NCBI GenBank assembly: GCA_032433765.1
Contig: JAVIAB010000051.1
Span: forward strand, 85,629,493-85,693,492
Length of the DNA stretch: 64,000 bases
Source: Megaustenia siamemsis
Taxonomy: Eukaryota; Mollusca; Gastropoda; Stylommatophora; Ariophantidae
Direction: 5' to 3'
Below, piece by piece: positions 23,196 through 46,242 of this stretch. The notes under the pieces were generated by a model. That model ran no database searches, was not told where the DNA came from, and saw only the letters and a program-made list of their open reading frames with translations. Made by a program: the position numbers and the translations under genes. Each line of letters starts with the position of its first letter. Position 1 is the stretch's first letter.

Positions 23196-26100
23196 CAAAC
23201 TAATGTATACACAGTTCACAAAGTGACAATGTCCAGGCTCACTAATGATGTATACACAGTTCACAAAGTGACAATGTCCAGGCTCACTAATGATGTATAC
23301 ACAGTTCACAAAGTGACAATGTGCAGGCTCACTAATGATGTATACAAAGTTCACAAAGTGACGACGTCCAGGCTCATTAATGATGTATACACAGTTCACA
23401 AAGTGACAATGTCCAGGCTCACTAATGATGTATACAAAGTTCACAAAGTGACGGCGTCCAGGCTCACTAATAAAGTATACACAGTTCACAAAGTGACAAT
23501 GTCCAGGCTCACTAATGATGTATACAAAGTTCACAAAGTGACGACGTCCAGGCTCACTAATAATGTATTCACAATTCACAAAGTGGCAATGTCCACGCTC
23601 ACTAATGATGTATATACAGTCCACAAAGTGACAACGTCCAGGTTCACTAATGATGTATGCAAAGTTCACAAAGTGACAATGTCCAGGCTCACTAATGATG
23701 TAAACACAGTTCACAAAGTAACAATATTCAGGCTAACTAATGATGTATACACAGTTCACAAAGTGACAACGACATGGCTCACTAATGATGTATACACAGT
23801 TCACAAAGTGATAACGTCAAGGCTCACTAATGATGTATACACAGTTCACAAAGTGACGACGTCCAGGCTCACTAATGATTTATACACAGTTCACAAAGTG
23901 AAGACGTCCAGGCTCACTAATGATGTATGCAAAGTTCACAAAGTGATAACGTCCAGGCTCACTAATGATGTATACACAGTTCACAAAGCGACGACGTCCA
24001 GGCTCACTAATGATGTATACACAGTTCACAAAGTGAAGACGTCCAGCCTCACTAATGATGTATACACAGTTCACAAAGTGACAAAGTCCAGGCTCAGTAA
24101 TGATGAATACACAGTTCACAAAGTGACGACGTCCAGGCTCTTTAATGATGTATACACTGTTCACAAAGAGACGGCGTCCAGGCTCACTAATGATGTATAC
24201 ACAGTTCACAAAGTGACGACGTCTAGGCTCATTAATGATGTATACACAGTTCACAAAGTGACGACGTCCAGGCTCACTAATGATGTATACACAATACACA
24301 AAATGACGACGTCCAGGCTCACTAATGATGTATACACAGTTCACAAAGAGACAAAGTCCAGGCTCACTAATGATGTATACACAGTTCACAAAGTACTGAC
24401 GTCAAGGCTCACTAATGATGAATACACAGTTCACAAAGTGACGACGTCTAGGCTCACTAATGATGTATACACAGGTCATAAAGTAATGGCGTCTAGGCTT
24501 ACTAATGATGAATACACAGTTCACAAAGTGACGACGTCCAGGCTCACTAATGATGTATACACAGTTCACAAAGTGACGACGTCCAGGCTCACAAATGATG
24601 TATACACAGTTCACAAAGTGACGACGTCCAGGCTCATTAATGATGTATACAAAGTTCACAAAGTGACGACGTACAGGCTCACTAATGATGTAAACACAGT
24701 TCACTAAGTAACGACGTCCAGGCTCACTAATGATTTATACACAGTTCACAAAGTAACGACGTCTAGGCTCACTAATGATGTATGCACAGTTCACAAAGTG
24801 ACGACGTCCAGGCTCACTAATAATGTATACACAGTTCACAAAGTAACAACGTCCAGGCTCACTAATGATGTATACACAGTTCACAAAGTGACAACGTCCA
24901 GGCTCACTAATGATGTATACAAAATTCACAAAGTGACAATGTCCAGGCTCATTAATGATGTATACACAGTTCACAAAGTGACAATGTCCAGACACACTAA
25001 TAATGTATTCACAGTTCACAAAGTGACGACGTCAAGGCTCACTAATAATGTATACACAGTTCACAAAGTGACAATGTCCAGGCTCACTAATGATGTATAC
25101 ACAGTTCACAAAGTGACAATGTGCAGGCTCACTAATGATGTATACAAAGTTCACAAAGTGACGACGTCCAGGCTCATTAATGATGTATACACAGTTCACA
25201 AAGTGACAATGTCCAGGCTCACTAATGATGTATACAAAGTTCACAAAGTGACGGCGTCCAGGCTCACTAATAAAGTATACACAGTTCACAAAGTGACAAT
25301 GTCCAGGCTCACTAATGATGTATACAAAGTTCACAAAGTGACGACGTCCAGGCTCACTAATAATGTATTCACAATTCACAAAGTGGCAATGTCCACGCTC
25401 ACTAATGATGTATATACAGTCCACAAAGTGACAACGTCCAGGTTCACTAATGATGTATGCAAAGTTCACAAAGTGACAATGTCCAGGCTCACTAATGATG
25501 TATACACAGTTCACAAAGTGACGACGTCTAGGGTCACTAATGATGTATACACAGTTCACAAAGTGACGACGTCTAGGCTCACTAATAATGTATACACTGT
25601 TCACAAAGTGACAACGTCCAGGCTCACTAATGATGTATACACAGTTCACAAAGTGACGACGTCTAGGATCATTAATGATGTATACACAGTTCACAAAGTG
25701 ACGACGTCCAGGCTCACTAATGATGTATACACAATACACAAAATGACGACGTCCAGGCTCACTAATGATGTATACACAGTTCACAAAGAGACAAAGTCCA
25801 GGCTCACTAATGATGTATACACAGTTCACAAAGTACTGACGTCAAGGCTCACTAATGATGAATACACAGTTCACAAAGTGACGACGTCTAGGCTCACTAA
25901 TGATGTATACACAGTTCATAAAGTAATGGCGTCTAGGCTCACTAATGATGAATACACAGTTCACAAAGTGACGACGTCCAGGCTCACTAATGATGTATAC
26001 ACAGTTCACAAAGTGACGACGTCCAGGCGCACTAATGATGTATACACAGTTCACAAAGTGACGACGTCCAGGCTCATTAATGATGTATACAAAGTTCACA

Positions 26101-27290
26101 AAGTGACGACGTACAGGCTCACTAATGATGTAAACACAGTTCACTAAGTAACGACGTCCAGGCTCACTAATGATTTATACACAGTTCACAAAGTAACGAC
26201 GTCTAGGCTCGCTAATGATGTATGCACAGTTCACAAAGTGACGACGTCCAGGCTCACTAATAATGTATACACAGTTCACAAAGTAACAACGTCCAGGCTC
26301 ACTAATGATGTATACACAGTTCACAAAGTGACAACGTCCAGGCTCACTAATGATGTATACAAAATTCACAAAGTGACAATGTCCAGGCTCATTAATGATG
26401 TATACACAGTTCACAAAGTGACAATGTCCAGACACACTAATAATGTATTCACAGTTCACAAAGTGACGACGTCAAGGCTCACTAATAATGTATACACAGT
26501 TCACAAAGTGACAATGTCCAGGCTCACTAATAATGGATACACAGTTCACAAAGTGACAATGACCAGGCTCACTAATGATGTATACAAAGTTCACAAAGTG
26601 ACAATGTCCAGGCTCATTAATGATGTATACACAGTTTTCAAAGTGACGACGTCCAGGCTCACTAATGATGTATACAGAGTTCACAAAGTGAAGACGTCCA
26701 GGCTCACTAATGATGTATACAGAGTTCACAAAGTGAAGACGTCCAGGCTCACTAATGATGTATGCACAGTTCACAAAGTGACGACGTCTAGGGTCACTAA
26801 TGATGTATACACAGTTCACAAAGTGACGACGTCTAGGGTCACTAATGATGTATACACAGTTCACAAAGTGACGACGTCTAGGGTCACTAATGATGTATAC
26901 ACAGTTCACAAAGTAACGACGTCCAGGCGCACTAATGATGTATACACAGTTCACAAAGTGACGACGTCTAGGGTCACTAATGATGTATACACATTTCACA
27001 AAGTGACGACGTCTAGGTTCACTAATAATGTATACACTGTTCACAAAGTGACAACGTCCAGGCTCACTAATGATGTATACACAGTTCACAAAGTGACGAC
27101 GTCTAGGATCATTAATGATGTATACACAGTTCACAAAGTGACGACGTCCAGGCTCACTAATGATGTATACACAATACATAAAGTTACGACGTCCAGGCTC
27201 ACTAATGATGTATACACGGTTCACAAAGTAACGACGTCTAGGCTCACTAATGATGTATACACAGTTCACAAAGTGACGACGTCCAGGCCT
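23196..27290. repeat. 45-bp satellite, about 91 units, with higher-order structure
   Basis: Unit GTATACACAGTTCACAAAGT, then GACGACGTCCAGGCTCACTAATGAT in pieces (45 bases, 15 codons). Large blocks recur: 24121-24720 with 25561-26160 (offset 1440, 32 units) and 23260-23690 with 25060-25490 (offset 1800, 40 units), so the array grew by block duplication. Open frames of 379-494 codons on plus (T-V-H-K-V-T-T-S-R-L-T-N-D-V-Y) and up to 265 codons on minus arise because the unit lacks stops. Variants such as ACAATG/ACGACG/AAGACG change amino acids freely, which argues against coding. Confidence 0.95.
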
Positions 27291-28154: not shown

Positions 28155-31100
28155 GTTATATATCCGTTTCCGGTTGTTTCCAACATGGAGGAATTATTTT
28201 TCTCCGGCTTGGTATAGAAACGTTGATCAGAGGTTTAACAAGCCGCTATCGTAAAAACGATGTTGTTAATGAAACGTAGACCTGATACAGAATGTGTAAA
28301 TTAGCAGTAGATAGTAGTGATAGTTTTTTCGGCCCTAAAACAACAACAAAAATAGGATTCTGGAATGTGCGAACAATGGCCGCTCCGACGAAACATGCAC
28401 AGGTCGCGAGCGAGATGGACAGATACGATCTAGATATTTTAGGATTAAGCGAAATGCGCTGGCCTGGAACAGGTAGGAGATCTATTGATAATAAAATAGT
28501 AGTTTTTTCTGGAAGGGAAGATGGAAAACACCGTGAAGGAGTAGGCATAATGATGACAGACAAAGCTGCAAGAAGTTTATTAGAATGGGAACCGGTAAAT
28601 AGCCGTCTGATACGAACACGATACAAAACAAAACATGGAAGACTTTCAATTATTCAATGTTATGCGCCTACTAACGAAGCTGATGATGAAGTTAAGGATG
28701 ATTTTTATAACCAACTGCAACAACTTATAAACAAAATACCAAAACACGATCTTTTAATTGTAATGGGAGACTTCAACGCCAAAGTAGGACAAGATAACGC
28801 AGGAGTGGAACATGTGATGGGGAGAGAAGGCTGTAATACAACAAGTCAGAATGGAGAAAGATTAATAGAATTATGTTTAATAGAAAATTTAGTTATAGGT
28901 GGGACATTATTTCCACATAAAAATATCCACAAAACAACATGGATATCTCCTGATGATAGAACATCAAATCAAATTGACCACCTATGTATTAAACAACAAT
29001 TCAGATCATCATTAATAGATGTAAGAGCATACAGAGGTGCTGATGTTAATAGTGACCACAACCTGTGCATTGGGAAAATAAGATTAAAATTTAGAAACCA
29101 ACAGAAGAGGTCAATTACACATAAAATTGATAGTCATAAACTGAAAGATGAAGCAATAAAGGAAAAGTTTAACATAGAGCTAAGTAATTGTTATTCAGCA
29201 CTTGGTGAAATAGACTTAGATATCAATGAAATGTGGGACTCACAGAGCAAAATACTAATGACAGCAGCAGAAGCAAGTGCTGGACTGAAGAAAATGGAAA
29301 AACGAGCTTGGATCTCAGACACCACATGGAAATACATCAAAGAAAGAAGAGAAGCGAAGAGAGCCATGACTAATGTAAAGACAGATCTTGGAAAGGTTCT
29401 GGCAAAAGCAACATACAAAGAATTAGACAACAAAGTGAAAAGTTCGGCAAGAAGAGATACAAGAGCTTATATAGACAACTTGGCAGAGAAAGCAGAGACA
29501 GCTGCAATTACAGGAGACAGCAGAACTCTTTATACTGTACAAAAGATGCTGACAAACACCTATACATCCAGTGGAACACCAATTCTAGACAAATCTGGAT
29601 TAATGCTAACAACAAGCGCAGACATAAAAGCCCGTTGGGCGGAACACTTCAAAGAAATTCTTAACCGTCCACTACCTCACAGTTTAATAGATTTTGAAGC
29701 TGAAACACCAGCAGCAGAATTAGATGTAAATTTAGATGACTTCACCTTGAGTGAAATAGAAACCACCTTAAAGCTAATGACCAATAACAAGGCTGCTGGA
29801 GAGGATAAGTTAACAGCTGAGATCCTCAAGGCAATTGATAGCCATAATTTAATACATCTCCAAAAAATGTTCAACATCATTTGGAAAACAGAGAAGACGC
29901 CTCATAAATGGAAAAAAGGAATCATTGTTAAGATCCCAAAAAAGGGCAATCTTAGAGATTGTAACAATTGGAGAGGCGTGACACTTTTGTCAGTTGCCTC
30001 AAAATTATTCTGTAAAATCATCCTAAATAGAATAAAGGATTCAATAGATACAGTAATGCGTGAAGAACAGGCTGGGTTTAGAAAAGGGAGAAGCTGTCTT
30101 GACCACATTTTCACTCTACGACTTATATTGGAGGAACACATTGAAAAGCAAAAACCTTTTGTACTTAACTTCATCGACTTCAAAAAAGCATTTGATAGTA
30201 TTCATAGAGATTCTTTGTGGAAAATTCTGAAGCAATATGGCTTACCATCAAAAATCATAAATATTATCAAAGACATGTATGATGGTTACACATGTGCAGT
30301 TCGAACAGAGGAAGGACTGAGCGAATGTTTCCCAATAGAAACTGGGGTTAAACAAGGATGTATTTTATCGCCCTTGTTATTTGGAATTGTTATGGACTTC
30401 ATAATGAAGAAATGCTGCACTGGTAATAAAGGCATCGAATGGATACAAGGAGACCATTTGGAGGACCTCGACTTTGCTGATGACATAGTTCTCATCAGCA
30501 ATCAGATAAAAACGATGCAGGAAAACACAAATGAACTATCATCAATAGCCAGCAAAATTGGGCTTGAGGTCAATCATGAAAAGACTAAAGTCATGAAAAG
30601 TTTAATTCCAACAAGTGACAAAATATACATGGAAAACAAACCAGTAGAAGAGATCGATCACTTCATCTATCTTGGAAGTCACATTGATCGAGAAGGGGAT
30701 ACGAGCAAAGAAATTAGAATCAGACTGGCTAAAGCAGCAATGTCTTTCAGAAGCCTTGAAAAGTTGTGGAAATCAAAACTCATTAGCACAAACACAAAAC
30801 TTAGGCTATTCAAATCAAATGTACTATCAACCCTTACATATGCGTGTGAAAGCTGGAAAACAACAAGAGATATAGAAACAAAGTTGAACGCATTCGAAAA
30901 TAAATGTCTAAGGAAAATACTTGGTATAGAATGGAACGAATTCAAAACAAACGAGGAAATTAGAGAAATCGCCAATCAACCACTAATATCTTCAGTAATA
31001 AAGAAAAGACGATGGTCATACGTTGGACATGTGATGAGAAGAGATAATAATCGAATAGCAAAGCAAGCCCTCAAATGGGAAACAACAGGTAAAAGAAAAA

Positions 31101-31324
31101 GAGGAAGACCCAGGGAGACACTGAGAAGAACATTGATGAGAGAGGCAAGAGCAGCAGGAATCGGCTCCCTCAATGAGATAGAACTGCTTGCACAGAACAG
31201 AGACAGATGGCGAGATTTGATAAAATATCTTTAAAAGAAAACTGCTAGAACAAAAATTCATATAGGAGAAGGTGTATCTTGGTCTACGCCCTATGGGCCG
31301 GTTACGGCTCGAAAGGTCAATAGA
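28155..31324 (+). mobile_element. Full-length RTE-type non-LTR retrotransposon
   Basis: A 3170-bp insertion bounded by the 11-bp repeat TAGGTTCACCC. It has a short 5' leader of about 137 bases, one uninterrupted ORF of 980 codons, and a short 3' end (CTATGGGCCGG, GGCTCGAAAGGTCAATAGATA) with no poly-A. A single ORF with endonuclease plus RT, a short 3' UTR and a simple-repeat tail are standard for RTE elements. The uninterrupted ORF and perfect TSD suggest a young, possibly active copy. Confidence 0.88.
28292..31234 (+). CDS. RTE ORF: AP-endonuclease plus reverse transcriptase
   Basis: A 980-residue polyprotein that should nick genomic DNA and prime reverse transcription of its own RNA at the nick. 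The AP-endonuclease domain (about 18-262) has all the usual residues: N25 in FWNVRTM, E54 in LSEMRW, Tyr in CYAPT, D160 and N162 in GDFNA, H256 in SDH. The RT domain (about 500-760) has GVTLLSVASKLFCKIILNRI, EEQAGFRKGRSC, motif A D629 in FIDFKKAFD, GVKQGCILSPLLF and the catalytic FADD at 728-731. The C-terminal part has YACESW, a WSYVGHVMRR motif and a basic GKRKRGRPRE segment. Length and domain order fit RTE ORFs, often mis-annotated as craniofacial development protein 2-like. The first ATG fits the leader, but a downstream start near M29 (codon 29, in VRTMAAPT) would cut into the endonuclease and is unlikely. Confidence 0.92.
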   Translation: MCKLAVDSSDSFFGPKTTTKIGFWNVRTMAAPTKHAQVASEMDRYDLDILGLSEMRWPGTGRRSIDNKIVVFSGREDGKHREGVGIMMTDKAARSLLEWEPVNSRLIRTRYKTKHGRLSIIQCYAPTNEADDEVKDDFYNQLQQLINKIPKHDLLIVMGDFNAKVGQDNAGVEHVMGREGCNTTSQNGERLIELCLIENLVIGGTLFPHKNIHKTTWISPDDRTSNQIDHLCIKQQFRSSLIDVRAYRGADVNSDHNLCIGKIRLKFRNQQKRSITHKIDSHKLKDEAIKEKFNIELSNCYSALGEIDLDINEMWDSQSKILMTAAEASAGLKKMEKRAWISDTTWKYIKERREAKRAMTNVKTDLGKVLAKATYKELDNKVKSSARRDTRAYIDNLAEKAETAAITGDSRTLYTVQKMLTNTYTSSGTPILDKSGLMLTTSADIKARWAEHFKEILNRPLPHSLIDFEAETPAAELDVNLDDFTLSEIETTLKLMTNNKAAGEDKLTAEILKAIDSHNLIHLQKMFNIIWKTEKTPHKWKKGIIVKIPKKGNLRDCNNWRGVTLLSVASKLFCKIILNRIKDSIDTVMREEQAGFRKGRSCLDHIFTLRLILEEHIEKQKPFVLNFIDFKKAFDSIHRDSLWKILKQYGLPSKIINIIKDMYDGYTCAVRTEEGLSECFPIETGVKQGCILSPLLFGIVMDFIMKKCCTGNKGIEWIQGDHLEDLDFADDIVLISNQIKTMQENTNELSSIASKIGLEVNHEKTKVMKSLIPTSDKIYMENKPVEEIDHFIYLGSHIDREGDTSKEIRIRLAKAAMSFRSLEKLWKSKLISTNTKLRLFKSNVLSTLTYACESWKTTRDIETKLNAFENKCLRKILGIEWNEFKTNEEIREIANQPLISSVIKKRRWSYVGHVMRRDNNRIAKQALKWETTGKRKRGRPRETLRRTLMREARAAGIGSLNEIELLAQNRDRWRDLIKYL

Positions 31325-34792: not shown

Positions 34793-34798
34793 TACCGT
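34793..34798. repeat. 6-bp target-site duplication, left
   Basis: TACCGT directly outside the first base of the left inverted arm. The same six bases follow the last base of the right arm at 46237-46242. Confidence 0.8.
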
Positions 34799-34828
34799 AG
34801 TAGTATACAATGTCAATTAGGGACCCCA

Positions 34829-34990
34829 AATGTGCTTCCATCTGCAGCCAAATCGCTGCAGCCGGGTTGTTTTTCCTTATATAAATAGTCTACCTGCAGA
34901 ATGTGCTTCCATCTGCAGCCAAATCGCTGCAGCCGGGTTGTTTTTCCTTATATGAGAGTCTACCGTTTTTCCTTATATGAGAGTCTACCC
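34829..34990. repeat. Subterminal direct repeats of the left arm
   Basis: A unit of about 71 bases beginning ATGTGCTTCCATCTGCAGCC, with CCGGGTTGTTTTTCCTTATAT, occurs twice. A shorter unit TTTTTCCTTATATGAGAGTC then follows. The mirror copy lies at about 46045-46206. Subterminal repeats of this kind often serve as binding sites for the mobilising enzyme or replication proteins; that role is an inference. Confidence 0.85.
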
Positions 34991-35105
34991 GCCCATTTTT
35001 GTTCCGGTCGTGGTGGTGGTGACCTCCCGGTGACCTCTCGGGTGAGCGCTCGTGGTGGTGTGGTGACCTCCCGCGGCGGTGGTGAAGGGGTGGTGGTGGT
35101 ATCAT
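34985..35105. repeat. GGT-rich, GC-rich tract of the left arm
   Basis: GTGGTGGTGACCTCCCGGTG-type sequence with CTCGGGTGAGCGCTCGTGG. The mirror copy (45920-46045) carries an extra CACCCCTTCAC duplication. Confidence 0.8.
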
Positions 35106-35290
35106 AAATCTATTATATTCTTTGTACTTTCAATGGTTCCGTAACTTTCATAAATCTATTCTTTCTTTATACTCTCAGTCAATAAAAACAGTGACAAGTT
35201 TATTTATTGTTTTTAAAAAACTTCCTTTAGAATTAAAGGTAACAGCTTAGGCCGTTACACACGCTACACGCCAAATACGAAACACTGTGT

Positions 35291-35490
35291 TTAACGTTAA
35301 GCGAGAGATCAAAGAGTTCCCGGTAGGCGCGCCGCAAGGGGCCGCAAGATCAAAGAGTTCACGGTAGACGCGAGGCGACCTCGCGCAGCGCGCTAGGTGC
35401 CGCAAGATCAAAGAAGCCGGTAGATGCGCAGCGAAGACGCGCAGCGAAGACGCGCAGCAAGCGTTTAACGTTAAGCGCGATCAAAGAATC
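35291..35490. promoter_or_regulatory. GC island with four GATCAAAG sites and two TTAACGTTAA palindromes (left arm)
   Basis: GATCAAAG occurs at 35307, 35348, 35406 and 35479. TTAACGTTAA lies at 35291 and 35465, bracketing the cluster. Between them is CpG-rich GACGCGCAGCGAA repeat. GATCAAAG is the core recognised by TCF/LEF (HMG-box) proteins, so a host-signal-responsive control region is possible but unproven. The mirror cluster is at about 45535-45735. Confidence 0.5.
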
Positions 35491-35577
35491 CGCCTCCCGT
35501 GAGTACTTACTTCCCGTTAGACGGTAAGTGTTCATCAGGAGTGTCATTTAACAGGGGAATTTCACGATACCGATGTT

Positions 35578-35800
35578 TTAATGTGAGATGCTTGGGGGTA
35601 ATTAATATCTTTGCGCCGTTTCGTGTTCAAAGACCGTGTTTCGCTGTGAAAAGTTTTGATTGAATGTTTGAGTGCCAGACTGGCCAGGGCTACGGACTTT
35701 TTATCATCTGAAGATTAGAATACCACTTATCAGGGGCATTTTACTGGGTGGTTGTTTTAATGTGAGATGTTTAGGGGAAATTAACACTGACAAGTTTATT
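35578..35800. repeat. Short internal duplication in the left arm
   Basis: TTAATGTGAGATGCTTGGGG at 35578 and TTAATGTGAGATGTTTAGGG at 35757 share about 30 bases of context. The mirror is at 45240-45450. Confidence 0.6.
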
Positions 35801-36039
35801 TATTTATTTAATGTTTTATTCGTATATATACCACAATAGATAACACAGGGGTAGACAATAATGTAGTCTTTAACTATTGTACATTATAGACAAGTATAAT
35901 ACATAAGAAACAAAGTAGTTTATTTACAAGAAGTAATACATAATACTGTTAAATTGCTAAAGGGGAGGTGGTCACGTTGTCAGAATGGACCTGTCGCTTG
36001 ATGGGGTGAGGTAGTAAGTTGGAAGTTGTAGTAGTAGGT

Positions 36040-36165
36040 TAGAAGTTGGCGTGTATTAGAGGAAGTTGGTTGTGGAGGTAGTTGGTAGTAGAAGTTGTAG
36101 TAGTGAAAGTTGTAGTTGTAGACGTAGTCGGTGTAGAAGTTGTAGTAGTGAAAGTTGTAGTAGAG
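36040..36165. repeat. GTAGAAGTTGTAGTAG-type repeat, left arm
   Basis: Low-complexity GAAGTTGTAGTAGTGAAAGT units. The mirror is at 44865-44995. Confidence 0.8.
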
Positions 36166-36534
36166 CAGGGGACGACGTTCAAATTAACAGACGACGACTT
36201 TTATTCGACTGACTCAACAACCAAAGACCAAAACGTTACTCCGAAACCAACGAAAGCTTAGACTTTGGAGTTCTATATCTTTAGCACTCCAACGAATAAC
36301 AGACAACAGTAATGGTGAACCTTACAGATAAGAAAACTTAGTTCCAAACCCCAAAATTTCGTCTCATAACTAAAAAGTTGAATTCAAAACATTAAAAATC
36401 TAGGTCCAAAGTCAAAAAAAAAAAAGTTGGACACGGTAGGGCAAAAGGGCATATTCTTTCCAACCAATACTCCCTATTCTTCTACACATCTGCATCTCGA
36501 AGCCTTCGAATTTATATTCAATGTTTGGCTACTG

Positions 36535-36833
36535 ACAATGTAGCAGTCATTTCGTTGTAATGGTCATCTCGTTTTAACAGACACGTATGTCATGTCGTTG
36601 TAACAGACACGTATGTCATGTCATTTTATCAGAGACGTATGGATGTAATTGTCGTTGTAATAGCCATGTCGTTGTATCAGTCATGTCGATGTAGTAGACA
36701 CGTATGTCATGTCAATGTAACAGTCATGTCAATGTAACAGTCATGTCAATGTAACAGTCATTTCGTTGTAATAGTCATCTCGTTGTAACAGTCACGTATG
36801 TCATGTCGTTTTATCAGAGACGTATGGTATGTC
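36535..36833. repeat. Irregular GTCATGTCGTTGTAACA repeat, left arm
   Basis: Units of about 17 bases (CAGTCATGTCAATGTAA, GACACGTATGTCATGTCG) abut the 31-bp array. The mirror is at 44196-44490. Confidence 0.85.
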
Positions 36834-37412
36834 GTGATGGACGAATGTAGGTTGTCGACTGTGCCATGATGGCTCATGTAGGTTGTCGACTGGGCCATGA
36901 TGGATCATGTAGGTTGTCGACTGGGCCATGATGGATCATGTAGGTTGTCGACTGTGCCATGATGGATCATGTAGATTGTCGACTGTGTCGAGATGGACGA
37001 ATGTAGGTTGTCGACTGTGCCATGATGGATGAATGTAGGTTGTCGACTGTGCCATGATGGATCATGTAGGTTGTCGACTGTGTCGAGATGGATCATGTAG
37101 GTTGTCAACTGGGCCATGATGGATCATGTAGGTTGTCGACTGTGCCATGATGGATCATGTAGATTGTCGACTGTGTCGAGATGGATGAATGTAGGTTGTC
37201 GACTGTGTCGAGATGGATGAATGTAGGTTGTCGACTGTGTCGAGATGGACGAATGTAGGTTGTCGACTGGGCCATGATGGATCATGTAGGTTGTCGACTG
37301 GGCCATGATGGATCATGTAGGTTGTCGACTGGGCCATGATGGATCATGTAGGTTGTCGACTGTGCCATGATGGATCATGTAGATTGTCGACTGTGTCGAG
37401 ATGGATGAATGT
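36834..37412. repeat. 31-bp minisatellite, left arm, about 18 units
   Basis: Unit ATGTAGGTTGTCGACTGTGC plus CATGATGGATC, alternating with a CGAGATGGACGA form. Each unit carries a GTCGAC palindrome. A unit of 31 shifts the reading frame by one each time. The mirror array is at 43618-44195 with units in the same order. Confidence 0.95.
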
Positions 37413-37513
37413 AATTGGCGAGTATGCTCCAACAAATCACCGCGCCATTTAAACTTCTTTGAACATAATGGACACGGATGTTCACCAGAAGAAACCTCAT
37501 TATGAGAAACCAT
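37313..37513 (-). CDS. Small single C2H2 zinc-finger ORF (left arm copy)
   Basis: A 66-residue frame facing outwards. Residues 14-35 form one classical C2H2 finger: C14 and C17 in CPLC, H30 and H35 after KWRGDLLE, with a basic KKFKWR. I start at the ATG after TTTCTCCAG (MVSHNEV). That TTTCTCCAG could instead be a splice acceptor, making this the last exon of a longer gene. After the finger the frame runs straight into the 31-bp minisatellite, so the C-terminus (ISTQSTIYMIHHG...) is repeat-encoded and ends at the first unit stop. One residue differs from the right-arm copy (I versus T). A DNA-binding role is what the finger suggests; nothing more specific can be said. Confidence 0.5.
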   Translation of the reverse strand: MVSHNEVSSGEHPCPLCSKKFKWRGDLLEHTRQLHSSISTQSTIYMIHHGTVDNLHDPSWPSRQPT

Positions 37514-37543
37514 CTGGAGAAAATCCAATAACCCTTTCGTCAA

Positions 37544-38258
37544 CCATATTTAACATACCTAGTTTAACTTCATCAAACATCAAGCTCAACAATACTTAGC
37601 ATACCTACTTTAAACACCTCGATAAAATTGAATAACCTTTCATCGATAAGCCTTAACGTACTTTAAGAGAAAACAATCCAACTTACTGTGTAAAATAGAA
37701 TCTCAATCCGTTAGAATGAATAGTAACTTTCCTTGAAGCAACCAAACTTATAACACGAAAGCCCTGAAGGGTCTTGTTTAAATATAGCCTGGTAACAAAT
37801 GAATACATTATCCAATCAGCGAGTGATTATGCCAACATCGACTGATATCTGGATTAACCAATTAGAGAAGAGCATTAACATTGGAGGCGGAGCAAAGAAA
37901 TGACTGACATCTGTATTATAACCATTCAGAGAAGAGCATTAGCATGGGAGGCGGAGCAAAGAAATGACTGACATCTGTATTATAACCATTCAGAAAAGAG
38001 CATTACTATGAACGGCAGAGTGATTAACCAATTATAGAAGAGCGTAACTTTGAAAGCGGTTCCAGTTCCATCTTAAGGTAAATGATTTGGTCGGGTTCTC
38101 ATCGAGGATTGTGGGCGTTTCTGGTCCATAGAATGTGTTTGGATAAACTTATGTAGGAGTTTATGTTCCTGGGGGTTGATATTATTCACACATATGATAA
38201 GGCGTATAAGAAACATTCCATGTTTTATAACGCGATGGCTAACCTAGTATACACATGA
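37544..38258. promoter_or_regulatory. Divergent intergenic region of the left arm
   Basis: Separates the outward C2H2 ORF from the inward Bcl-2-like frame, so it is the natural place for their promoters. It holds a twice-repeated about 63-base unit (GAAATGACTGACATCTGTAT, AGAGAAGAGCATTA; 37890-38010). On minus it has a TATATTTAAA box near 37778 upstream of the C2H2 ORF. Upstream exons for either gene may also lie here; I could not place them. Confidence 0.4.
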
Positions 38259-38651
38259 TCGGAGAGAAATGAGCTGTTATTTACTGGAATAATTCAGCGA
38301 GTCGGTGGTCATGATATCTACGCCACGTTTGTAACCATCGTTATCGAAATACTTTCAGATCGAATTCGCAATTTCGGTCGTCTTGTTGTTCTATATACCC
38401 TCGCCTATCGATTAGTTAAGAATCATGTCAAAGACATGTTCGACTCTGATTCCGACATTTGTGTTTTAGAAACGGACTTTGGTACTTGGACCGGTGGTAT
38501 CATCGGAAGAGAATTTGGAGAGTGGTTACTAAAAGAAGGTGGTTTGGAAAATTGTCTAGACCTCTCTAACGAAGAAGCTACAACACTGTGGACTCTACTT
38601 CGCAACAGCCTTTGGTCTTTAAGAGCTTTACCTAGAAATGTTTATCTGTGA
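38259..38651 (+). CDS. Bcl-2-family-like protein, terminal exon (left arm copy)
   Basis: Open frame of 130 codons facing inwards. A BH1-like helix region reads EILSDRIRNFGRLVVLYTLA (N-F-G-R at 38370, in place of the usual N-W-G-R), followed by YRLVKNHVKD, as in BAK/MCL1-type proteins. A BH2-like segment follows: FGEWLLKEGGLENCLDL (Trp at 38523, Gly-Gly, then hydrophobic). Spacing between the two is about right for the family. There is no in-frame ATG before 38436, which lies after BH1, so an upstream exon or a non-ATG start must supply the N-terminus; BH3 and BH4 are not visible. No clear membrane tail follows. AATAAA sits 18 bases after the stop (38669). Bcl-2 proteins control mitochondrial cell death; viral relatives usually block it. 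The identity was read by eye from motifs. Confidence 0.62.
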   Translation, partial: SERNELLFTGIIQRVGGHDIYATFVTIVIEILSDRIRNFGRLVVLYTLAYRLVKNHVKDMFDSDSDICVLETDFGTWTGGIIGREFGEWLLKEGGLENCLDLSNEEATTLWTLLRNSLWSLRALPRNVYL

Positions 38652-38668
38652 GTTTATATATTTTCCCT

Positions 38669-38674
38669 AATAAA
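38669..38674 (+). terminator. Polyadenylation signal for the Bcl-2-like frame, left arm
   Basis: AATAAA within 20 bases of the stop codon. The mirror copy lies at 42355-42360 on minus. Confidence 0.5.
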
Positions 38675-39329
38675 AGTTTGGTAACCCCACAGCATTTGTT
38701 ACTGCCTTACAATATTGTTTACCAGGTCACGACACCCTCTCACACTGATGATGAGGGTTGTCCTGTAGTAGGCCTGTGATTGTAATAAGAATGGTTTGCT
38801 CCAGCTTTGAAATCTGAAATTTTCACAAAAAGAGATGGTGTTACTCAGTTCCCCTATAATGGCGATGTTGAGTTACTAAAAATAGATTTGATCTCTGATG
38901 CAATACCTGATTAGTTACTAAAAATAGAATGTGACCTATGATCCAATAACAGAATACTCATTGCCCTGGTGACCAATTGAGACTGATGGAAAAGTGAATT
39001 CCCAGTCATAGAAAAGTATGTTGTCACGATAGGTGTGTCAATAACAAGGAATAAAAAAATCATTAAAGACATCCTAATTAAGTTGTGAAATTTTGGTGGT
39101 TGAGAGATAAATCTGAAGATAAGCACATCAAACTATAAGAACAAGGAAACAATCGTATATTACACACTCTTAGAGCCAGTGTTAAGTTAACACGTATTTA
39201 GTTAAAATAGAAGGTTATAAATTGAGTAGAGGTAAACTTATACCTTATGGCTCATCTACTTTTTCGAAGAAACTAATTAAAATTAAAATAAGTCAAATAA
39301 AAACAAACAAATATGATCTTTTTATAATG

Positions 39330-39335
39330 TTTATT
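39330..39335 (-). terminator. Possible polyA signal for the central gene
   Basis: AATAAA on minus, about 145 bases beyond the last stop in this region. Confidence 0.3.
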
Positions 39336-39473
39336 TTCACAATAAAACTAGACAACACATGTTACACATTCAAATGTTTTAATAATTGAATAATGATGCT
39401 TTAAATAGTGCAAATATGGATACAAATCATCTAAAAAAGTACACATATAACAACATAGTCATGTGTTTAATGC

Positions 39474-39884
39474 TTAAATTACAAGTTTACGTGGTCTCCC
39501 ACGTGGTTTTTTAAATACACAAGGATCGCAAAATTTAACACAATTTTGTTTATTGTTCTTAATAACATAAGATCCATCAGTTATATTAGTGATCGAACGG
39601 GGGTCAATTGTGAGCTGTGTCTGTGAGAACAGTCGAAAGATCACTCTGTTGATACTGGAAGTCGTCATAAAAGGAAGGAGCAGCGATCGACCACTCACCC
39701 TCATTGGCTGTTTGTTCTCTGTCATAGTCTGAGCGAAATGTAGAAGCTCCATCAGTGGTTGCTTGTATACTGTCACACTCATTGGCCGTTTGTTCTCGGG
39801 CATAGTCTGAGCGAAATGTAGAAGCTCCATCAGTGGTTGCTTGTATACTGTCACACTCAGCTGAGAGAATCGTAGACGCATCAC
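39474..39884 (-). CDS. Overlapping frame ending in an AT-hook
   Basis: A 136-codon frame overlapping the end of the PC4 ORF in another phase. Its last residues, FKKPRGRPRKLVI, contain the AT-hook core R-G-R-P-R-K, which binds AT-rich minor groove. Part of the frame before it is just the alternative reading of a duplicated 78-base unit, so only the last 45 or so residues look meaningful. They could be a C-terminal extension of the PC4 protein reached by splicing or by a single-base frameshift. I cannot decide which. Confidence 0.35.
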   Translation of the reverse strand: MMRLRFSQLSVTVYKQPLMELLHFAQTMPENKRPMSVTVYKQPLMELLHFAQTMTENKQPMRVSGRSLLLPFMTTSSINRVIFRLFSQTQLTIDPRSITNITDGSYVIKNNKQNCVKFCDPCVFKKPRGRPRKLVI

Positions 39885-40305
39885 CTGTGGCTACTCGTAG
39901 TCTGTCACACTCTGAGAGAATCGTAGACTTCAGACCCACAAAAGTCTCAAATTCAGGCTGTGTTAGTGTTATACCGTAACGTGTTGGGAATTTCAACCCC
40001 GTTGTGCCATCGTATTTTCTAAGATGAATTAAAGTCTTTGCTCGATATCTCGAAACTGAGACAGCCTTCAAACCATTCTTCTGTAGAGGTTTTACATACT
40101 CGCCATTACGAGCGGCATAGAAAAAAGCACCATCACAGTCAACATTAACAGCGGAATCACACATATCCATTCTAACGGACTCCATTCTAAAAAGCACACG
40201 ACTTGGTAGCAGGGCTCTGACTTTCTGTATGTAGCAGCACTGAGAACGGCTGCCCTTTATACCCTGTAACAAGGGGGGCGTGGCCAGTCTATTTATAGTA
40301 ACCAA
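39604..40305 (-). CDS. PC4/p15-like single-stranded DNA-binding domain protein
   Basis: A 233-codon frame. Residues about 79-130 match the PC4 (transcriptional coactivator p15) fold: a first strand VSRYRAKTLIHLRKY, a loop, then the signature F-P-T-R-Y-G-I-T-L-T and the helix QPEFETFVGL. PC4 domains bind ssDNA or melted duplex and act in transcription or replication. After the domain come acidic/Thr-rich repeats with a 26-residue unit (ECDSIQATTDGASTFRSDY...) present twice. Several starts are possible. The Met at residue 41 (MESVRMDM) follows a TATAAA at 40256-40261. Alternatively TTGTTACAG, with CAG at 40264-40266, is a splice acceptor in the right phase to join the acidic exon at 41387-41782. 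It faces away from the right arm. Confidence 0.65.
   Translation of the reverse strand: MVTINRLATPPLLQGIKGSRSQCCYIQKVRALLPSRVLFRMESVRMDMCDSAVNVDCDGAFFYAARNGEYVKPLQKNGLKAVSVSRYRAKTLIHLRKYDGTTGLKFPTRYGITLTQPEFETFVGLKSTILSECDRLRVATGDASTILSAECDSIQATTDGASTFRSDYAREQTANECDSIQATTDGASTFRSDYDREQTANEGEWSIAAPSFYDDFQYQQSDLSTVLTDTAHN
39691..39850. repeat. 78-bp direct duplication within the PC4-like gene
   Basis: The unit containing CTGAGCGAAATGTAGAAGCT and CATCAGTGGTTGCTTGTATA is present twice in tandem, with few changes. The length is a multiple of three, so the frame is kept. Confidence 0.85.
40256..40261 (-). promoter_or_regulatory. TATA box candidate upstream of the PC4-like ORF
   Basis: TATAAA on minus, with a TCAGT initiator-like site about 20 bases downstream and the MESVR start codon about 75 bases downstream. 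The TATA-to-initiator gap is shorter than usual. Confidence 0.35.
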
Positions 40306-40319
40306 TGGAATACGTTCTA

Positions 40320-40869
40320 TTTATAGTAACTGATACAATACGTCATTGGACGTGATGAGACATGTTCAGAGAGCGGCCATCTTTGATGAATCATGGGAAG
40401 TTTGTCCCACGAGGCCGATGTATCCATGGAGTCATCAAAACAAATGATGATCCAGAGGGCGGGGCCTACACTGACAAGTTGGAGACAAACTCGAGTATAG
40501 CATGTTATGTTCATTAGAGGGAAGTGTTCTTGTGAACACAGGATTGGGCTTGACAAGTAAAATATCAACTAAACTTTAGTTTCTATTACTTCTGAAATAC
40601 TTTTTAGAATCTTGGCTCTGTGATCAATAGCTAGGATGGGGGAAATAATTTTGCCACATTCTTGTATACGGTTTATGAAGCGCTCCTTGTCTATAGAAAA
40701 CTGCTGTCAAGAATAATTGGGTTCGTCATTTTCATCATCGTGGATTGTTAAAACAATCGTTTCTTCACAAAAATGAACCTAGAAGAAACGAGATAATTTA
40801 GGTTTAAAAGCCAGCAAAAACTTCTAAATGAAAAACACTTTATAATAAAATATCTCTGCACAACTCTGT
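40320..40869. other. Centre region without a gene call
   Basis: The open frame of 83 codons on minus (40317-40568) has no known motif. If the spliced model is right, this is intron. Confidence 0.4.
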
Positions 40870-41215
40870 AGCTCATGTTATTTCTCTTTGTTTCCCTCTG
40901 TCTTTTCACCCCTCACATTTTCAAGTTGGTACAAGTTATTACAGCGGTTCTCATTACAAGTCACAACATCCAAGTATTGGATATCTCTTTCGCTTCTCAC
41001 CTAGTAACCTATTGTCCATGAGTCTCTTGGGTAATTTAAACCTGCTTCTACGTAAAATTTACTCTACTCCACCTCCAGAGGATAACACTTCAAAAGATTT
41101 ACCAGTATTAATATTATTCCACTTGTCTTTTTCTTTGATGTTACAGTTACTTCTTTATGGTATCAAGGATGAGTCCTTTATTTTTTTTCGGTTTCCTTTA
41201 CTATAACGTCAATCA
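40870..41215 (-). pseudogene. LINE-G relic inside the element
   Basis: The phrases TTTGTTTCCCTCTGTCTTTT, CAAGTTATTACAGCGGTTCT and CCATGAGTCTC follow 10070-10330 and 18880-19000, the minus-strand LINE-G copies. It is heavily decayed. It would lie within the proposed intron, so the host of this insertion tolerated it. Confidence 0.55.
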
Positions 41216-41386
41216 TTACTAGCAACTAGTTTCACAATTTTCATTACATGTGGAAATTTACTATTTATCATCATCAATAAAGATAATGTCTCTACTAGTT
41301 GTGTAATAACCCAGTAATAAAGATAACGAAGGCGAAACAGAATATCAAAATCAAAAGGTAAACTCGACTCCAAAGCAATTACTTAC

Positions 41387-41782
41387 CTTGGTAGCTCTAT
41401 CGTTTAGTGTATCACCTTGCTGGCTGCAAGCGTATTGTTCGTTCCACGTTGCGTTAATTTGTTCAAAATAAATATCATGTTCAAAGATTTGTATATCTCT
41501 ATTATCAGTCGAGGAGTGGTTGTTAATTATTTCAGTTGGAATCTCCAGTCTTCCAGCTCCCTGATTTTGAGAGCCGGTGATGTAGGTGTCAGAGGTTTCA
41601 CTAGAGTTTAAAAACCTTTCATGTATATTTGTCTTTTTGAAAATTGAGTCTAAAGTTAAACCATTATTAAAATTACCACTAGGCCATATTGTCGTGGTTT
41701 GCGTGCTCATTGACAAATCACTATCTTCATCACTATCTTCCTCTTCTGAACTTGAGTTTATTCGAAAAAGTAGATGAGCCAT
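41387..41782 (-). CDS. Acidic first exon, start codon in the right arm
   Basis: A 132-codon frame beginning MAHLLFR inside the right TIR and continuing into the unique centre with the acidic run SSSEEEDSDEDSDLS. It ends at CAAG|GTAAGT (intron GT at 41385-41386), a perfect splice donor in phase 0. The mirror position in the left arm has the same first codons but meets a stop after MAHLLFRRN, so only the right-hand side is coding. TATAAAT lies at 41807-41813, rather close to the ATG. No known domain; acidic N-termini are common in transcription activators. It could join the PC4 frame at 40263, which is also phase 0. Confidence 0.5.
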
Positions 41783-42377
41783 AAGGTATAAGTTTACCTC
41801 TACTCAATTTATAACCTTCTATTTTAACTAAATACGTGTTAACTTAACACTGGCTCTAAGAGTGTGTAATATACGATTGTTTCCTTGTTCTTATAGTTTG
41901 ATGTGCTTATCTTCAGATTTATCTCTCAACCACCAAAATTTCACAACTTAATTAGGATGTCTTTAATGATTTTTTATTCCTTGTTATTGACACACCTATC
42001 GTGACAACATACTTTTCTATGACTGGGAATTCACTTTTCCATCAGTCTCAATTGGTCACCAGGGCAATGAGTATTCTGTTATTGGATCATAGGTCACATT
42101 CTATTTTTAGTAACTAATCAGGTATTGCATCAGAGATCAAAATCTATTTTTAGTAACTCAACATCGCCATTATAGGGGAACTGAGTAACACCATCTCTTT
42201 TTGTGAAAATTTCAGATTTCAAAGCTGGAGCAAACCATTCTTATTACAATCACAGGCCTACTACAGGACAACCCTCATCATCAGTGTGAGAGGGTGTCGT
42301 GACCTGGTAAACAATATTGTAAGGCAGTAACAAATGCTGTGGGGTTACCAAACTTTTATTAGGGAAAATATATAAAC

Positions 42378-42770
42378 TCACAGATAAACATTTCTAGGTA
42401 AAGCTCTTAAAGACCAAAGGCTGTTGCGAAGTAGAGTCCACAGTGTTGTAGCTTCTTCGTTAGAGAGGTCTAGACAATTTTCCAAACCACCTTCTTTTAG
42501 TAACCACTCTCCAAATTCTCTTCCGATGATACCACCGGTCCAAGTACCAAAGTCCGTTTCTAAAACACAAATGTCGGAATCAGAGTCGAACATGTCTTTG
42601 ACATGATTCTTAACTAATCGATAGGCGAGGGTATATAGAACAACAAGACGACCGAAATTGCGAATTCGATCTGAAAGTATTTCGATAACGATGGTTACAA
42701 ACGTGGCGTAGATATCATGACCACCGACTCGCTGAATTATTCCAGTAAATAACAGCTCATTTCTCTCCGA
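42378..42770 (-). CDS. Bcl-2-family-like protein, terminal exon (right arm copy)
   Basis: Mirror copy of the left-arm frame. The 71 residues from the internal Met are identical, as is the upstream BH1-like part as far as I compared. Stop at 42378-42380, polyA signal at 42355-42360. Having two intact copies of the same frame, with no drift in the protein, fits either recent insertion or arm-to-arm gene conversion. The upstream boundary is the in-frame stop at 42771-42773, and the same missing N-terminus problem applies. Confidence 0.62.
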   Translation of the reverse strand, partial: SERNELLFTGIIQRVGGHDIYATFVTIVIEILSDRIRNFGRLVVLYTLAYRLVKNHVKDMFDSDSDICVLETDFGTWTGGIIGREFGEWLLKEGGLENCLDLSNEEATTLWTLLRNSLWSLRALPRNVYL

Positions 42771-43515
42771 TCATGTGTATACTAGGTTAGCCATCGCGTT
42801 ATAAAACATGGAATGTTTCTTATACGCCTTATCATATGTGTGAATAATATCAACCCCCAGGAACATAAACTCCTACATAAGTTTATCCAAACACATTCTA
42901 TGGACCAGAAACGCCCACAATCCTCGATGAGAACCCGACCAAATCATTTACCTTAAGATGGAACTGGAACCGCTTTCAAAGTTACGCTCTTCTATAATTG
43001 GTTAATCACTCTGCCGTTCATAGTAATGCTCTTTTCTGAATGGTTATAATACAGATGTCAGTCATTTCTTTGCTCCGCCTCCCATGTTAATGCTCTTCTC
43101 TGAATGGTTATAATACAGATGTCAGTCATTTCTTTGCTCCGCCTCCAATGTTAATTCTCTTCTCTAATTGGTTAATCCAGATATCAGTCGATGTTGGCAT
43201 AATCACTCGCTGATTGGATAATGTATTCATTTGTTACCAGGCTATATTTAAACAAGACCCTTCAGGGCTTTCGTGTTATAAGTTTGGTTGCTTCAAGGAA
43301 AGTTACTATTCATTCTAACGGATTGAGATTCTATTTTACACAGTAAGTTGGATTGTTTTCTCTTAAAGTACGTTAAGGCTTATCGATGAAAGGTTATTCA
43401 ATTTTATCGAGGTGTTTAAAGTAGGTATGCTAAGTATTGTTGAGCTTGATGTTTGATGAAGTTAAACTAGGTATGTTAAATATGGTTGACGAAAGGGTTA
43501 TTGGATTTTCTCCAG
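42771..43515. promoter_or_regulatory. Divergent intergenic region of the right arm
   Basis: Mirror of 37514-38258. Differs by a few bases, including GTTAATGCTC versus GCTAATGCTC and GTTAATTCTC versus GTTAATGCTC in the repeated unit. Confidence 0.4.
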
Positions 43516-43716
43516 ATGGTTTCTCATAATGAGGTTTCTTCTGGTGAACATCCGTGTCCATTATGTTCAAAGAAGTTTAAATGGCGCGGTGATTTGTTGG
43601 AGCATACTCGCCAATTACATTCATCCACCTCGACACAGTCGACAATCTACATGATCCATCATGGCACAGTCGACAACCTACATGATCCATCATGGCCCAG
43701 TCGACAACCTACATGA
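43516..43716 (+). CDS. Small single C2H2 zinc-finger ORF (right arm copy)
   Basis: Mirror of the left-arm ORF with one amino-acid change just after the finger. The cysteines and histidines (C14, C17, H30, H35) are kept. As on the left, the frame is closed inside the 31-bp minisatellite. A longer start using TTG at 43486 is possible only if that codon is read as part of an upstream exon. Confidence 0.5.
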   Translation: MVSHNEVSSGEHPCPLCSKKFKWRGDLLEHTRQLHSSTSTQSTIYMIHHGTVDNLHDPSWPSRQPT

Positions 43717-44195
43717 TCCATCATGGCCCAGTCGACAACCTACATGATCCATCATGGCCCAGTCGACAACCTACATTCGTCCATCTCGACACAGTCGACA
43801 ACCTACATTCATCCATCTCGACACAGTCGACAACCTACATTCATCCATCTCGACACAGTCGACAATCTACATGATCCATCATGGCACAGTCGACAACCTA
43901 CATGATCCATCATGGCCCAGTCGACAACCTACATGATCCATCTCGACACAGTCGACAACCTACATGATCCATCATGGCACAGTCGACAACCTACATTCAT
44001 CCATCATGGCACAGTCGACAACCTACATTCGTCCATCTCGACACAGTCGACAATCTACATGATCCATCATGGCACAGTCGACAACCTACATGATCCATCA
44101 TGGCCCAGTCGACAACCTACATGATCCATCATGGCCCAGTCGACAACCTACATGAGCCATCATGGCACAGTCGACAACCTACATTCGTCCATCAC
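43618..44195. repeat. 31-bp minisatellite, right arm
   Basis: Mirror of the left array. The order of the CATGATGG and TCTCGACA unit types is the same, so the whole array was copied as a block. Confidence 0.95.
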
Positions 44196-44490
44196 GACAT
44201 ACCATACGTCTCTGATAAAACGACATGACATACGTGACTGTTACAACGAGATGACTATTACAACGAAATGACTGTTACATTGACATGACTGTTACATTGA
44301 CATGACTGTTACATTGACATGACATACGTGTCTACTACATCGACATGACTGATACAACGACATGGCTATTACAACGACATACCATACGTCTCTGATAAAA
44401 TGACATGACATACGTGTCTGTTACAACGACATGACATACGTGTCTGTTAAAACGAGATGACCATTACAACGAAATGACTGCTACATTGTC
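44196..44490. repeat. Irregular 17-bp-type repeat, right arm
   Basis: Mirror of 36535-36833 (TGACATGACTGTTACAT units). Confidence 0.85.
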
Positions 44491-45534
44491 AGTAGCCAAA
44501 CATTGAATATAAATTCGAAGGCTTCGAGATGCAGATGTGTAGAAGAATAGGGAGTATTGGTTGGAAAGAATATGCCCTTTTGCCCTACCGTGTCTAACTT
44601 TTTTTTTTTTGACTTTGGACCTAGATTTTTAATGTTTTGAATTCAACTTTTTAGTTATGAGACGAAATTTTGGGGTTTGGAACTAAGTTTTCTTATCTGT
44701 AAGGTTCACCATTACTGTTGTCTGTTATTCGTTGAAGTGCTAAAGATATAGAACTCCAAAGTCTAAGCTTTCGTTGGTTTCGGAGTAACGTTTTGGTCTT
44801 TGGTTGTTGAGTCAGTCGAATAAAAGTCGTCGTCTGTTAATTTGAACGTCGTCCCATGCTCTACTACAACTTTCACTACTACAACTTCTACACCGACTAC
44901 GTCTACAACTACAACTTTCACTACTACAACTTCTACTACCAACTACCTCCACAACCAACTTCCTCTAATACACGCCAACTTCTAACCTACTACTACAACT
45001 TCCAACTTACTACCTCACCCCATCAAGCGACAGGTCCATTCTGACAACGTGACCACCTCCCCTTTAGCAATTTAACAGTATTATGTATTACTTCTTGTAA
45101 ATAAACTACTTTGTTTCTTATGTATTATACTTGTCTATAATGTACAATAGTTAAAGACTACATTATTGTCTACCCCTGTGTTATCTATTGTGGTATATAT
45201 ACGAATAAAACATTAAATAAATAAATAAACTTGTCAGTGTTAATTTCCCCTAAACATCTCACATTAAAACAACCACCCAGTAAAATGCCCCTGATAAGTG
45301 GTATTCTAATCTTCAGATGATAAAAAGTCCGTAGCCCTGGCCAGTCTGGCACTCAAACATTCAATCAAAACTTTTCACAGCGAAACACGGTCTTTGAACA
45401 CGAAACGGCGCAAAGATATTAATTACCCCCAAGCATCTCACATTAAAACATCGGTATCGTGAAATTCCCCTGTTAAATGACACTCCTGATGAACACTTAC
45501 CGTCTAACGGGAAGTAAGTACTCACGGGAGGCGG

Positions 45535-45735
45535 ATTCTTTGATCGCGCTTAACGTTAAACGCTTGCTGCGCGTCTTCGCTGCGCGTCTTCGCTGCGCAT
45601 CTACCGGCTTCTTTGATCTTGCGGCACCTCGCGCGCTGCGCGAGGTCGCCTCGCGTCTACCGTGAACTCTTTGATCTTGCGGCCCCTTGCGGCGCGTCTA
45701 CCGGGAACTCTTTGATCTCTCGCTTAACGTTAAAC
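45535..45735. promoter_or_regulatory. GC island with CTTTGATC sites, right arm
   Basis: Mirror of 35291-35490: four CTTTGATC cores and two TTAACGTTAA palindromes. Confidence 0.5.
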
Positions 45736-46044
45736 ACAGTGTTTCGTATTTGGCGTGTAGCGTGTGTAACGGCCTAAGCTGTTACCTTTAATTCTAAAGG
45801 AAGTTTTTTAAAAACAATAAATAAACTTGTCACTGTTTTTATTGACTGAGAGTATAAAGAAAGAATAGATTTATGAAAGTTACGGAACCATTGAAAGTAC
45901 AAAGAATATAATAGATTTATGATACCACCACCACCCCTTCACCACCCCTTCACCACCGCCGCGGGAGGTCACCACACCACCACGAGCGCTCACCCGAGAG
46001 GTCACCGGGAGGTCACCACCACCACGACCGGAACAAAAATGGGC

Positions 46045-46206
46045 GGGTAGACTCTCATATAAGGAAAAACGGTAGACTCTCATATAAGGAAAAACAACCC
46101 GGCTGCAGCGATTTGGCTGCAGATGGAAGCACATTCTGCAGGTAGACTATTTATATAAGGAAAAACAACCCGGCTGCAGCGATTTGGCTGCAGATGGAAG
46201 CACATT
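46045..46206. repeat. Subterminal direct repeats, right arm
   Basis: Mirror of 34829-34990 (GGCTGCAGATGGAAGCACAT units). Confidence 0.85.
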
Positions 46207-46236
46207 TGGGGTCCCTAATTGACATTGTATACTACT

Positions 46237-46242
46237 TACCGT
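46237..46242. repeat. 6-bp target-site duplication, right
   Basis: TACCGT immediately after the last base of the right arm. Confidence 0.8.

What the first reader, a model, noticed from the sequence alone, without database searches (positions are those of the whole stretch)
34793..46242. An 11.4-kb palindromic element with 4.47-kb inverted arms, AG...CT ends and a 6-bp TSD
The two arms are reverse complements to within scattered differences, the ends are AGTAGTATAC/GTATACTACT and TACCGT flanks both sides. AG/CT termini with 6-bp duplication point to a Polinton/Maverick-type integrase, yet none of the usual genes is present and the TIRs take up 78% of the element, far beyond the hundreds of bases usual for Polintons. 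This may be a new non-autonomous family carrying its own cargo.
Basis: partly seen in the sequence, partly recalled or inferred. Interest (0 to 1): 0.92.

Follow-up and report, generated by a model that had tools for sequence, protein, structure and literature searches.

The report
Maverick-ended element with giant inverted arms
An 11.4-kb inserted DNA element in an apparently eukaryotic genome has the ends and target duplication of a virus-like Maverick transposon but no recognised replication, integration or capsid gene, and consists mostly of two near-identical 4.5-kb inverted arms with a Bcl-2-like reading frame around a centre with a PC4-like gene, so it looks like a stripped-down, helper-dependent relative of such a virus.

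Summary
The element is 34799-46236 (11,438 bp), flanked by TACCGT on both sides. Its arms of 4476 and 4482 bp agree in 4458 of 4488 columns and fill 78% of it. No PolB, integrase, ATPase, protease or capsid domain was recognised in the 47 translations scanned. The inner edge of the arms cuts the acidic ORF: the right copy is open for 132 codons, while the left copy stops after nine. This suggests that the right end was copied over the left, replacing part of a larger element. My best account is a helper-dependent Maverick derivative, like a defective viral genome, integrated by enzymes supplied in trans. The key test, a genome search for other copies and full-length relatives, never ran (21 requests unanswered). 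Family membership, copy number and host remain open. New variant of a known kind.

The parts
34793..34798 (.). Left target-site duplication TACCGT
34799..39274 (+). Left inverted arm, 4476 bp
34799..34804 (+). End motif AGTAGT, (AGT)2 of Mavericks
   Evidence: motif from PMC8097293 section 7
34829..34964 (.). Subterminal tandem repeat, period 71, 1.9 copies (mirror 46071-46206)
36845..37406 (.). 31-bp minisatellite, 18.0 copies, also scored as 188-bp units x 3.1 (mirror 43634-44184, 17.6 copies)
37313..37549 (-). C2H2-finger ORF, left copy, running into the minisatellite
   Evidence: the mirror copy was the one scanned
37840..38005 (.). 64-bp tandem repeats, 2.6 copies, with GC-rich and CCAAT-like stretches between the C2H2 and Bcl-2-like ORFs; promoter-like by inspection only (mirror 43024-43189)
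38259..38651 (+). Bcl-2-like ORF, left copy; no ATG in its first 59 codons, closed upstream by TGA at 38256-38258
39275..41754 (.). Unique centre, 2480 bp
39604..40185 (-). PC4-like gene, 193 codons plus stop if it begins at the ATG ending at 40185 (the open frame runs to 40320); TATA-like box at 40261 upstream
41387..41782 (-). Acidic ORF, 132 codons from ATG to a strong splice-donor match (AAG|GTAAGT); its first 28 bp lie in the right arm
39247..39276 (+). Truncated left-arm copy of the start of that ORF: nine codons, then TAA
   Evidence: sequence
41755..46236 (-). Right inverted arm, 4482 bp
42378..42770 (-). Bcl-2-like ORF, right copy, identical to the left
43480..43716 (+). C2H2-finger ORF, right copy
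46231..46236 (+). End motif ACTACT, (ACT)2 of Mavericks
46237..46242 (.). Right target-site duplication TACCGT

Best explanation
A non-autonomous derivative of a Maverick/Polinton-type integrating DNA virus, comparable to a defective viral genome. Shown: Maverick-type ends, a 6-bp duplication, 4.5-kb near-identical arms, accessory-type genes, no recognised core genes. Inferred: during protein-primed replication of a larger linear element, one end (now the right arm) was copied in inverted orientation onto the other side, deleting the left part with the replication, integration and capsid genes. Because both ends kept the terminal origin and integrase site, the product could still be copied and integrated by enzymes of an intact relative. 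The arms now carry two copies of a Bcl-2-like frame and a finger ORF. Both arms also carry the start region of a central unit (acidic exon, PC4), which only the right arm would read correctly, right to left.
For: Ends (AGT)2//(ACT)2 and TSD TACCGT match the Maverick end motif. Bcl-2 PF00452 E 3.3e-6, 28 bits; best PDB sequence matches are Mcl-1 chains, then A1/Bfl-1 and Bax among the 60 of 102 shown; weak TIGR00865, E 0.0032. PC4 PF02229 E 2.9e-7, above its cut-off. No core domain in 47 translations. The arm edge truncates an ORF on the left only, and the one match to AGGTAAG/AGGTGAGT in the element ends that ORF on the right. The 31-bp array shows two substitutions and no indel between the arms, so the arms became alike recently.
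Against: No autonomous relative or second copy was found, because the genome search did not complete (21 attempts). The host is unknown, and the end motif was read for vertebrates. Nothing in IMG/VR, where only close relatives and exact patterns could be found. The Bcl-2 score is below Pfam's gathering cut-off (31.4), its PDB match is only E 0.007, and the frame may be dead. No NCBIfam match for the PC4-like protein, no PDB match, and both structure models failed. The donor pattern is expected about 1.4 times by chance in this much DNA (my estimate), so splicing is weakly supported. Left truncation would follow from any duplication that ends there.
Confidence: 0.55

Rival explanations
1. A long-TIR (foldback-like) cut-and-paste transposon of another superfamily that captured a Bcl-2-like and a PC4-like gene; its 6-bp TSD and AGT repeats resemble Mavericks by coincidence.
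For: No Maverick core gene was recognised, and arms of 4.5 kb lie outside the intact vertebrate Maverick range.
Against: Both the 6-bp TSD and the 6-bp end motif fit Mavericks; each is rare by chance in the window. Accessory-type genes with promoter-like spacers (by inspection) fit a virus better; inference.
Confidence: 0.17
2. A helper-dependent satellite: a lineage in its own right that keeps long arms and accessory genes, has lost its core genes long ago and spreads on other Mavericks or viruses of the host.
For: Ordered layout; the central PC4 frame is open; the arms are nearly identical.
Against: No second copy seen (not searchable). The Bcl-2-like ORF has no ATG near its start and is closed upstream by a stop in both arms. 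The truncated nine-codon copy looks like a recent accident.
Confidence: 0.17
3. Recombination in the chromosome between two Maverick copies in opposite orientation, rather than a replication event, made the palindrome.
For: Gives the same arm structure, with an edge at any place.
Against: Two separate insertions would carry two different TSDs; here both outer flanks are TACCGT, so the palindrome was probably formed before insertion.
Confidence: 0.06
4. Assembly artefact (fold-back read or misjoined haplotypes).
For: Large palindromes are a known assembly hazard (recalled); reads were not available.
Against: The mirror stops exactly at Maverick-type ends and TSDs, the centre is unique, and the arms differ at scattered sites.
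Confidence: 0.03

Closest known systems
Maverick/Polinton elements of vertebrates (PMC8097293; section 7 and passages seen)
   Same: 6-bp end motif (AGT)2//(ACT)2, 6-bp TSD, inverted terminal repeats, accessory regions beside the core genes
   Different: No recognised PolB, integrase, ATPase, protease or capsid genes; arms 4476 bp against 46-1447 bp; length 11.4 kb against 12.7-24.6 kb
Polinton-like viruses of cryptophytes (PMC12220804; passages seen)
   Same: Integrated, TIRs of hundreds to thousands of bases, sometimes 4-6 bp duplications, so kilobase TIRs as such are not new
   Different: Those counted as complete carry capsid and replication genes; none recognised here
Adintoviruses (PMC11071296, PMC8363768; passages seen)
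   Same: Animal-associated adenovirus-like DNA viruses with a retrovirus-like integrase; cell-death-regulator cargo is a recollection that I could not check
   Different: The defining OTU-PolB, hexon and chromodomain integrase were not recognised; 'Bcl' and 'PC4' do not occur in the main text of either paper
Linear viruses with long terminal repeats and their defective genomes (8.4-kb repeats of an entomopoxvirus seen in a passage of PMC8363768; the rest recalled)
   Same: Long inverted ends; defective genomes with one end duplicated at the cost of essential genes are kept going by a helper
   Different: Here integrated in a chromosome with a target duplication; no helper seen
Foldback and other long-TIR transposons (recalled)
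   Same: Inverted repeats make up most of the element
   Different: Ends and TSD fit Mavericks, and it carries virus-like accessory genes

Membership tests
Maverick/Polinton | 6-bp target-site duplication | tested here: met
   TACCGT on both sides; 712 of 2,000,000 random placements
Maverick/Polinton | Conserved end motif (AGT)2//(ACT)2 or (AG)3//(CT)3 | tested here: met
   AGTAGT...ACTACT; motif in PMC8097293 section 7
Maverick/Polinton | Core genes: protein-primed PolB, integrase, ATPase, protease, major and minor capsid | tested here: not met
   No such Pfam domain at E up to 1 in 47 of the 76 stop-to-stop ORFs; the other 29 are 21 mirror copies and 8 minisatellite frames; frames below 50 codons and structural homology were not tested
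Maverick/Polinton | TIR within the range of intact vertebrate elements (46-1447 bp) | tested here: not met
   4476/4482 bp against the range
Maverick/Polinton | Shares termini with full-length elements of the same genome | not tested
   The genome search 'own' gave no answer in 21 requests
Adintovirus | OTU-PolB, hexon and chromodomain integrase (definition seen) | tested here: not met
   by Pfam only
Bcl-2 family (cargo protein) | Bcl-2 domain above the curated score | tested here: inconclusive
   PF00452 E 3.3e-6 but 28 bits under the 31.4 cut-off; best PDB match E 0.007; TIGR00865 17.4 bits against 283; model all-helical but mean pLDDT 39.3
PC4/p15 family (cargo protein) | PC4 domain above the curated score | tested here: met
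   PF02229 30.3 bits against 25, E 2.9e-7; no PDB sequence match at E up to 1, no NCBIfam match

The most novel reading that the evidence does not exclude
A satellite of Maverick-type viruses inside a eukaryotic genome: a separate lineage whose 4.5-kb inverted arms carry duplicated cell-death and finger genes, kept nearly identical by replication, and which spreads by parasitising the replication, integration and capsid machinery of intact Mavericks, as virophages and satellites do with their helpers.
Probability: 0.17. Interest if true: 0.85.

Novelty: new variant of a known kind. Interest (0 to 1): 0.55.

Why it matters
If the reading is right, Mavericks, whose status as transposons or endogenous viruses is debated, give rise to palindromic defective genomes that re-enter chromosomes, as replicating viruses would. 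That would be sequence evidence for active linear-genome replication and a route to non-autonomous families. It would also be a Maverick-type element with two copies of a Bcl-2-like frame. A whole-genome search with 200 terminal bases would decide between one accident and a family.

Tried and rejected
Protein relatives: none at E 1e-3 for the PC4-like ORF (1058 candidates) or the Bcl-2-like ORF (7 candidates). IMG/VR: for the PC4-like, Bcl-2-like and acidic ORFs 3, 6 and 46 stretches matched a pattern but none was confirmed as a relative, and two terminal patterns had no exact match. The tool says that records of the window's own or a very near genome may be left out. RNA families: 0 at gathering score in the window; tRNAs: 0. 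Structure models from single sequences were too poor to use (mean pLDDT 31.5 and 39.3), so no fold search was made. PHROGs gave only matches at E 0.028 or worse. No part of the element matches the rest of the window at E 1e-5. A host name was not obtained.

Pfam coverage: 47 translations of the 76 stop-to-stop ORFs of 50 codons or more (8, 30). By my reading of the coordinates the other 29 are 21 mirror copies of scanned frames and 8 minisatellite frames. Besides Bcl-2, PC4 and the zinc-finger families there were only weak matches below cut-off, which I take as chance: DUF3439 0.34, PTP-NADK 0.1, Rad50_zn_hook 0.11, PVL_ORF50 0.19, SACS 0.038, Microp_apicomplexa_21 0.088, WIV_2 0.091, DNA_ligase_IV 0.17 (mostly flank), Sua5_yciO_yrdC 0.18.

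Papers: answered searches were 15, 16, 26, 31 and 60. 'polinton' with 'Bcl-2' listed 3 papers; I read passages of PMC6431247 only, where Bcl-2 belongs to planarian Gypsy elements. Two of 'polinton', 'Bcl2', 'PC4' gave 161 papers, 20 listed, of which two held polinton with Bcl2: PMC6431247 and PMC11252502, the latter seen as a listing entry only. The paper that proposed adintoviruses is not held, so whether Bcl-2 or PC4 cargo is already printed for them was not checked. Searches and look-up failed by time-out. PMC8097293: section 7 and passages seen; PMC11071296, PMC8363768, PMC12220804, PMC2836005 and PMC11071308: passages only; PMC10812802: no passage held the terms.
Full report
Observation. 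The element occupies 34799-46236 (11,438 bp). Its arms are 34799-39274 and 41755-46236. They align at 99.376% identity over 4488 columns, with 4458 identical columns; the differences are 10 isolated substitutions, an 11-bp indel, one complex indel and two 1-bp indels. Both outer flanks are TACCGT. At this spacing equal 6-bp flanks occurred in 712 of 2,000,000 random placements. The mirror ends at the TSDs and the centre of 2480 bp is unique, so an artefact of assembly is unlikely, although reads were not available.

Termini. The ends read AGTAGT...ACTACT. PMC8097293 (section 7) gives 5'-(AGT)2//(ACT)2-3' as the commonest end motif of vertebrate Mavericks, and describes 134 elements with TIRs and 6-bp TSDs as intact. 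AGTAGT starts at 34 of 128,000 positions of the window on both strands. Motif and TSD together are good evidence that a Maverick-type integrase inserted the element. The same section gives TIRs of 46-1447 bp and lengths of 12,723-24,620 bp, so both values here lie outside that range. Against making too much of arm length: polinton-like viruses of cryptophytes are described with TIRs of hundreds to thousands of bases (PMC12220804 passage). The host of the window is unknown and need not be a vertebrate.

Genes. Each arm carries an ORF (38259-38651 +, 42378-42770 -) with a Bcl-2 match: PF00452 E 3.3e-6, 28 bits, under the 31.4-bit cut-off. The best PDB sequence matches are Mcl-1 chains at E 0.007, followed by A1/Bfl-1 and Bax among the 60 of 102 shown, and the NCBIfam bcl-2 model matches at E 0.0032, far below its cut-off. 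The ORF has no ATG in its first 59 codons and is closed upstream by TGA at 38256-38258; no arm difference falls in it or in that stop, so both copies are the same. It may be an exon of a spliced gene or a dead gene. A C2H2-finger ORF (43480-43716 and mirror) points outward (PF00096 E 0.0092, PF05605 E 0.00013, both below cut-off). The centre holds a PC4-like gene on the minus strand (39604-40185 from its likely ATG; PF02229 30.3 bits against a cut-off of 25, E 2.9e-7) with a TATA-like box at 40261; it had no match in NCBIfam or the PDB. An acidic ORF of 132 codons (22 D+E, 8 K+R) ends in a strong splice-donor match. PolB, integrase, ATPase, protease or capsid domains were not recognised in 47 translations.

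How the arms arose. The inner arm edge lies 28 bp inside the acidic ORF. On the right the ORF is open for 132 codons; on the left the copy stops after nine. The simplest history is that the right end is the original and was copied, inverted, to the left, ending inside this ORF and displacing whatever lay there. Both outer flanks carry the same TSD, so the palindrome probably existed before insertion. Terminal enlargements of this sort are known from linear viruses (recalled). The 31-bp minisatellite shows two substitutions and no indel between the arms, which points to a recent event or to continued equalisation during replication. All of this paragraph beyond the sequence facts is inference.

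How it would work. An intact relative would supply the polymerase, which starts at the terminal repeats, and the integrase, which recognises the AGTAGT ends; the element itself supplies only ends and cargo. The Bcl-2-like product, if made, would be expected to act on cell death, and the PC4-like protein to bind DNA or act in transcription; these roles rest on family resemblance only. On the right the arm start region would read the central unit leftward; the same region in the left arm would fire toward it, giving antisense RNA. None of this was tested.

What could not be done. The decisive search of the host genome never ran: the same request was sent 21 times and never answered. Copy number, empty site, relatives and host remain unknown. 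The claim of a family is therefore not supported; the claim that it works like a non-autonomous Maverick is moderately supported.

Novelty. Mavericks with accessory genes are known. In the passages that I read I met no Maverick-ended element made mostly of 4.5-kb arms and lacking core genes, but six paper searches timed out and the paper that proposed adintoviruses is not held, so no claim of absence from print is made. I rate it a new variant of a known kind.

Noticed in passing
28286-31234 (+): A 982-codon open frame with endonuclease and reverse transcriptase domains (PF00078 E 1.6e-37): a non-LTR-type retrotransposon frame without a stop.
   Followed up: partly
60125-62638 (+): An 837-codon open frame with DUF4371 and hAT dimerisation domains: a hAT-type transposase frame without a stop.
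   Followed up: partly
23203-27288: A 4-kb array of 45-bp repeats that is open on the plus strand as long frames (523, 479 and 409 codons).
   Followed up: no
7201-8355: A repeat array that is open in several frames on both strands.
   Followed up: no
37840-38005 and 43024-43189: 64-bp tandem repeats with GC-box-like and CCAAT-like stretches between the outward finger ORF and the inward Bcl-2-like ORF, resembling a two-way promoter by inspection.
   Followed up: partly
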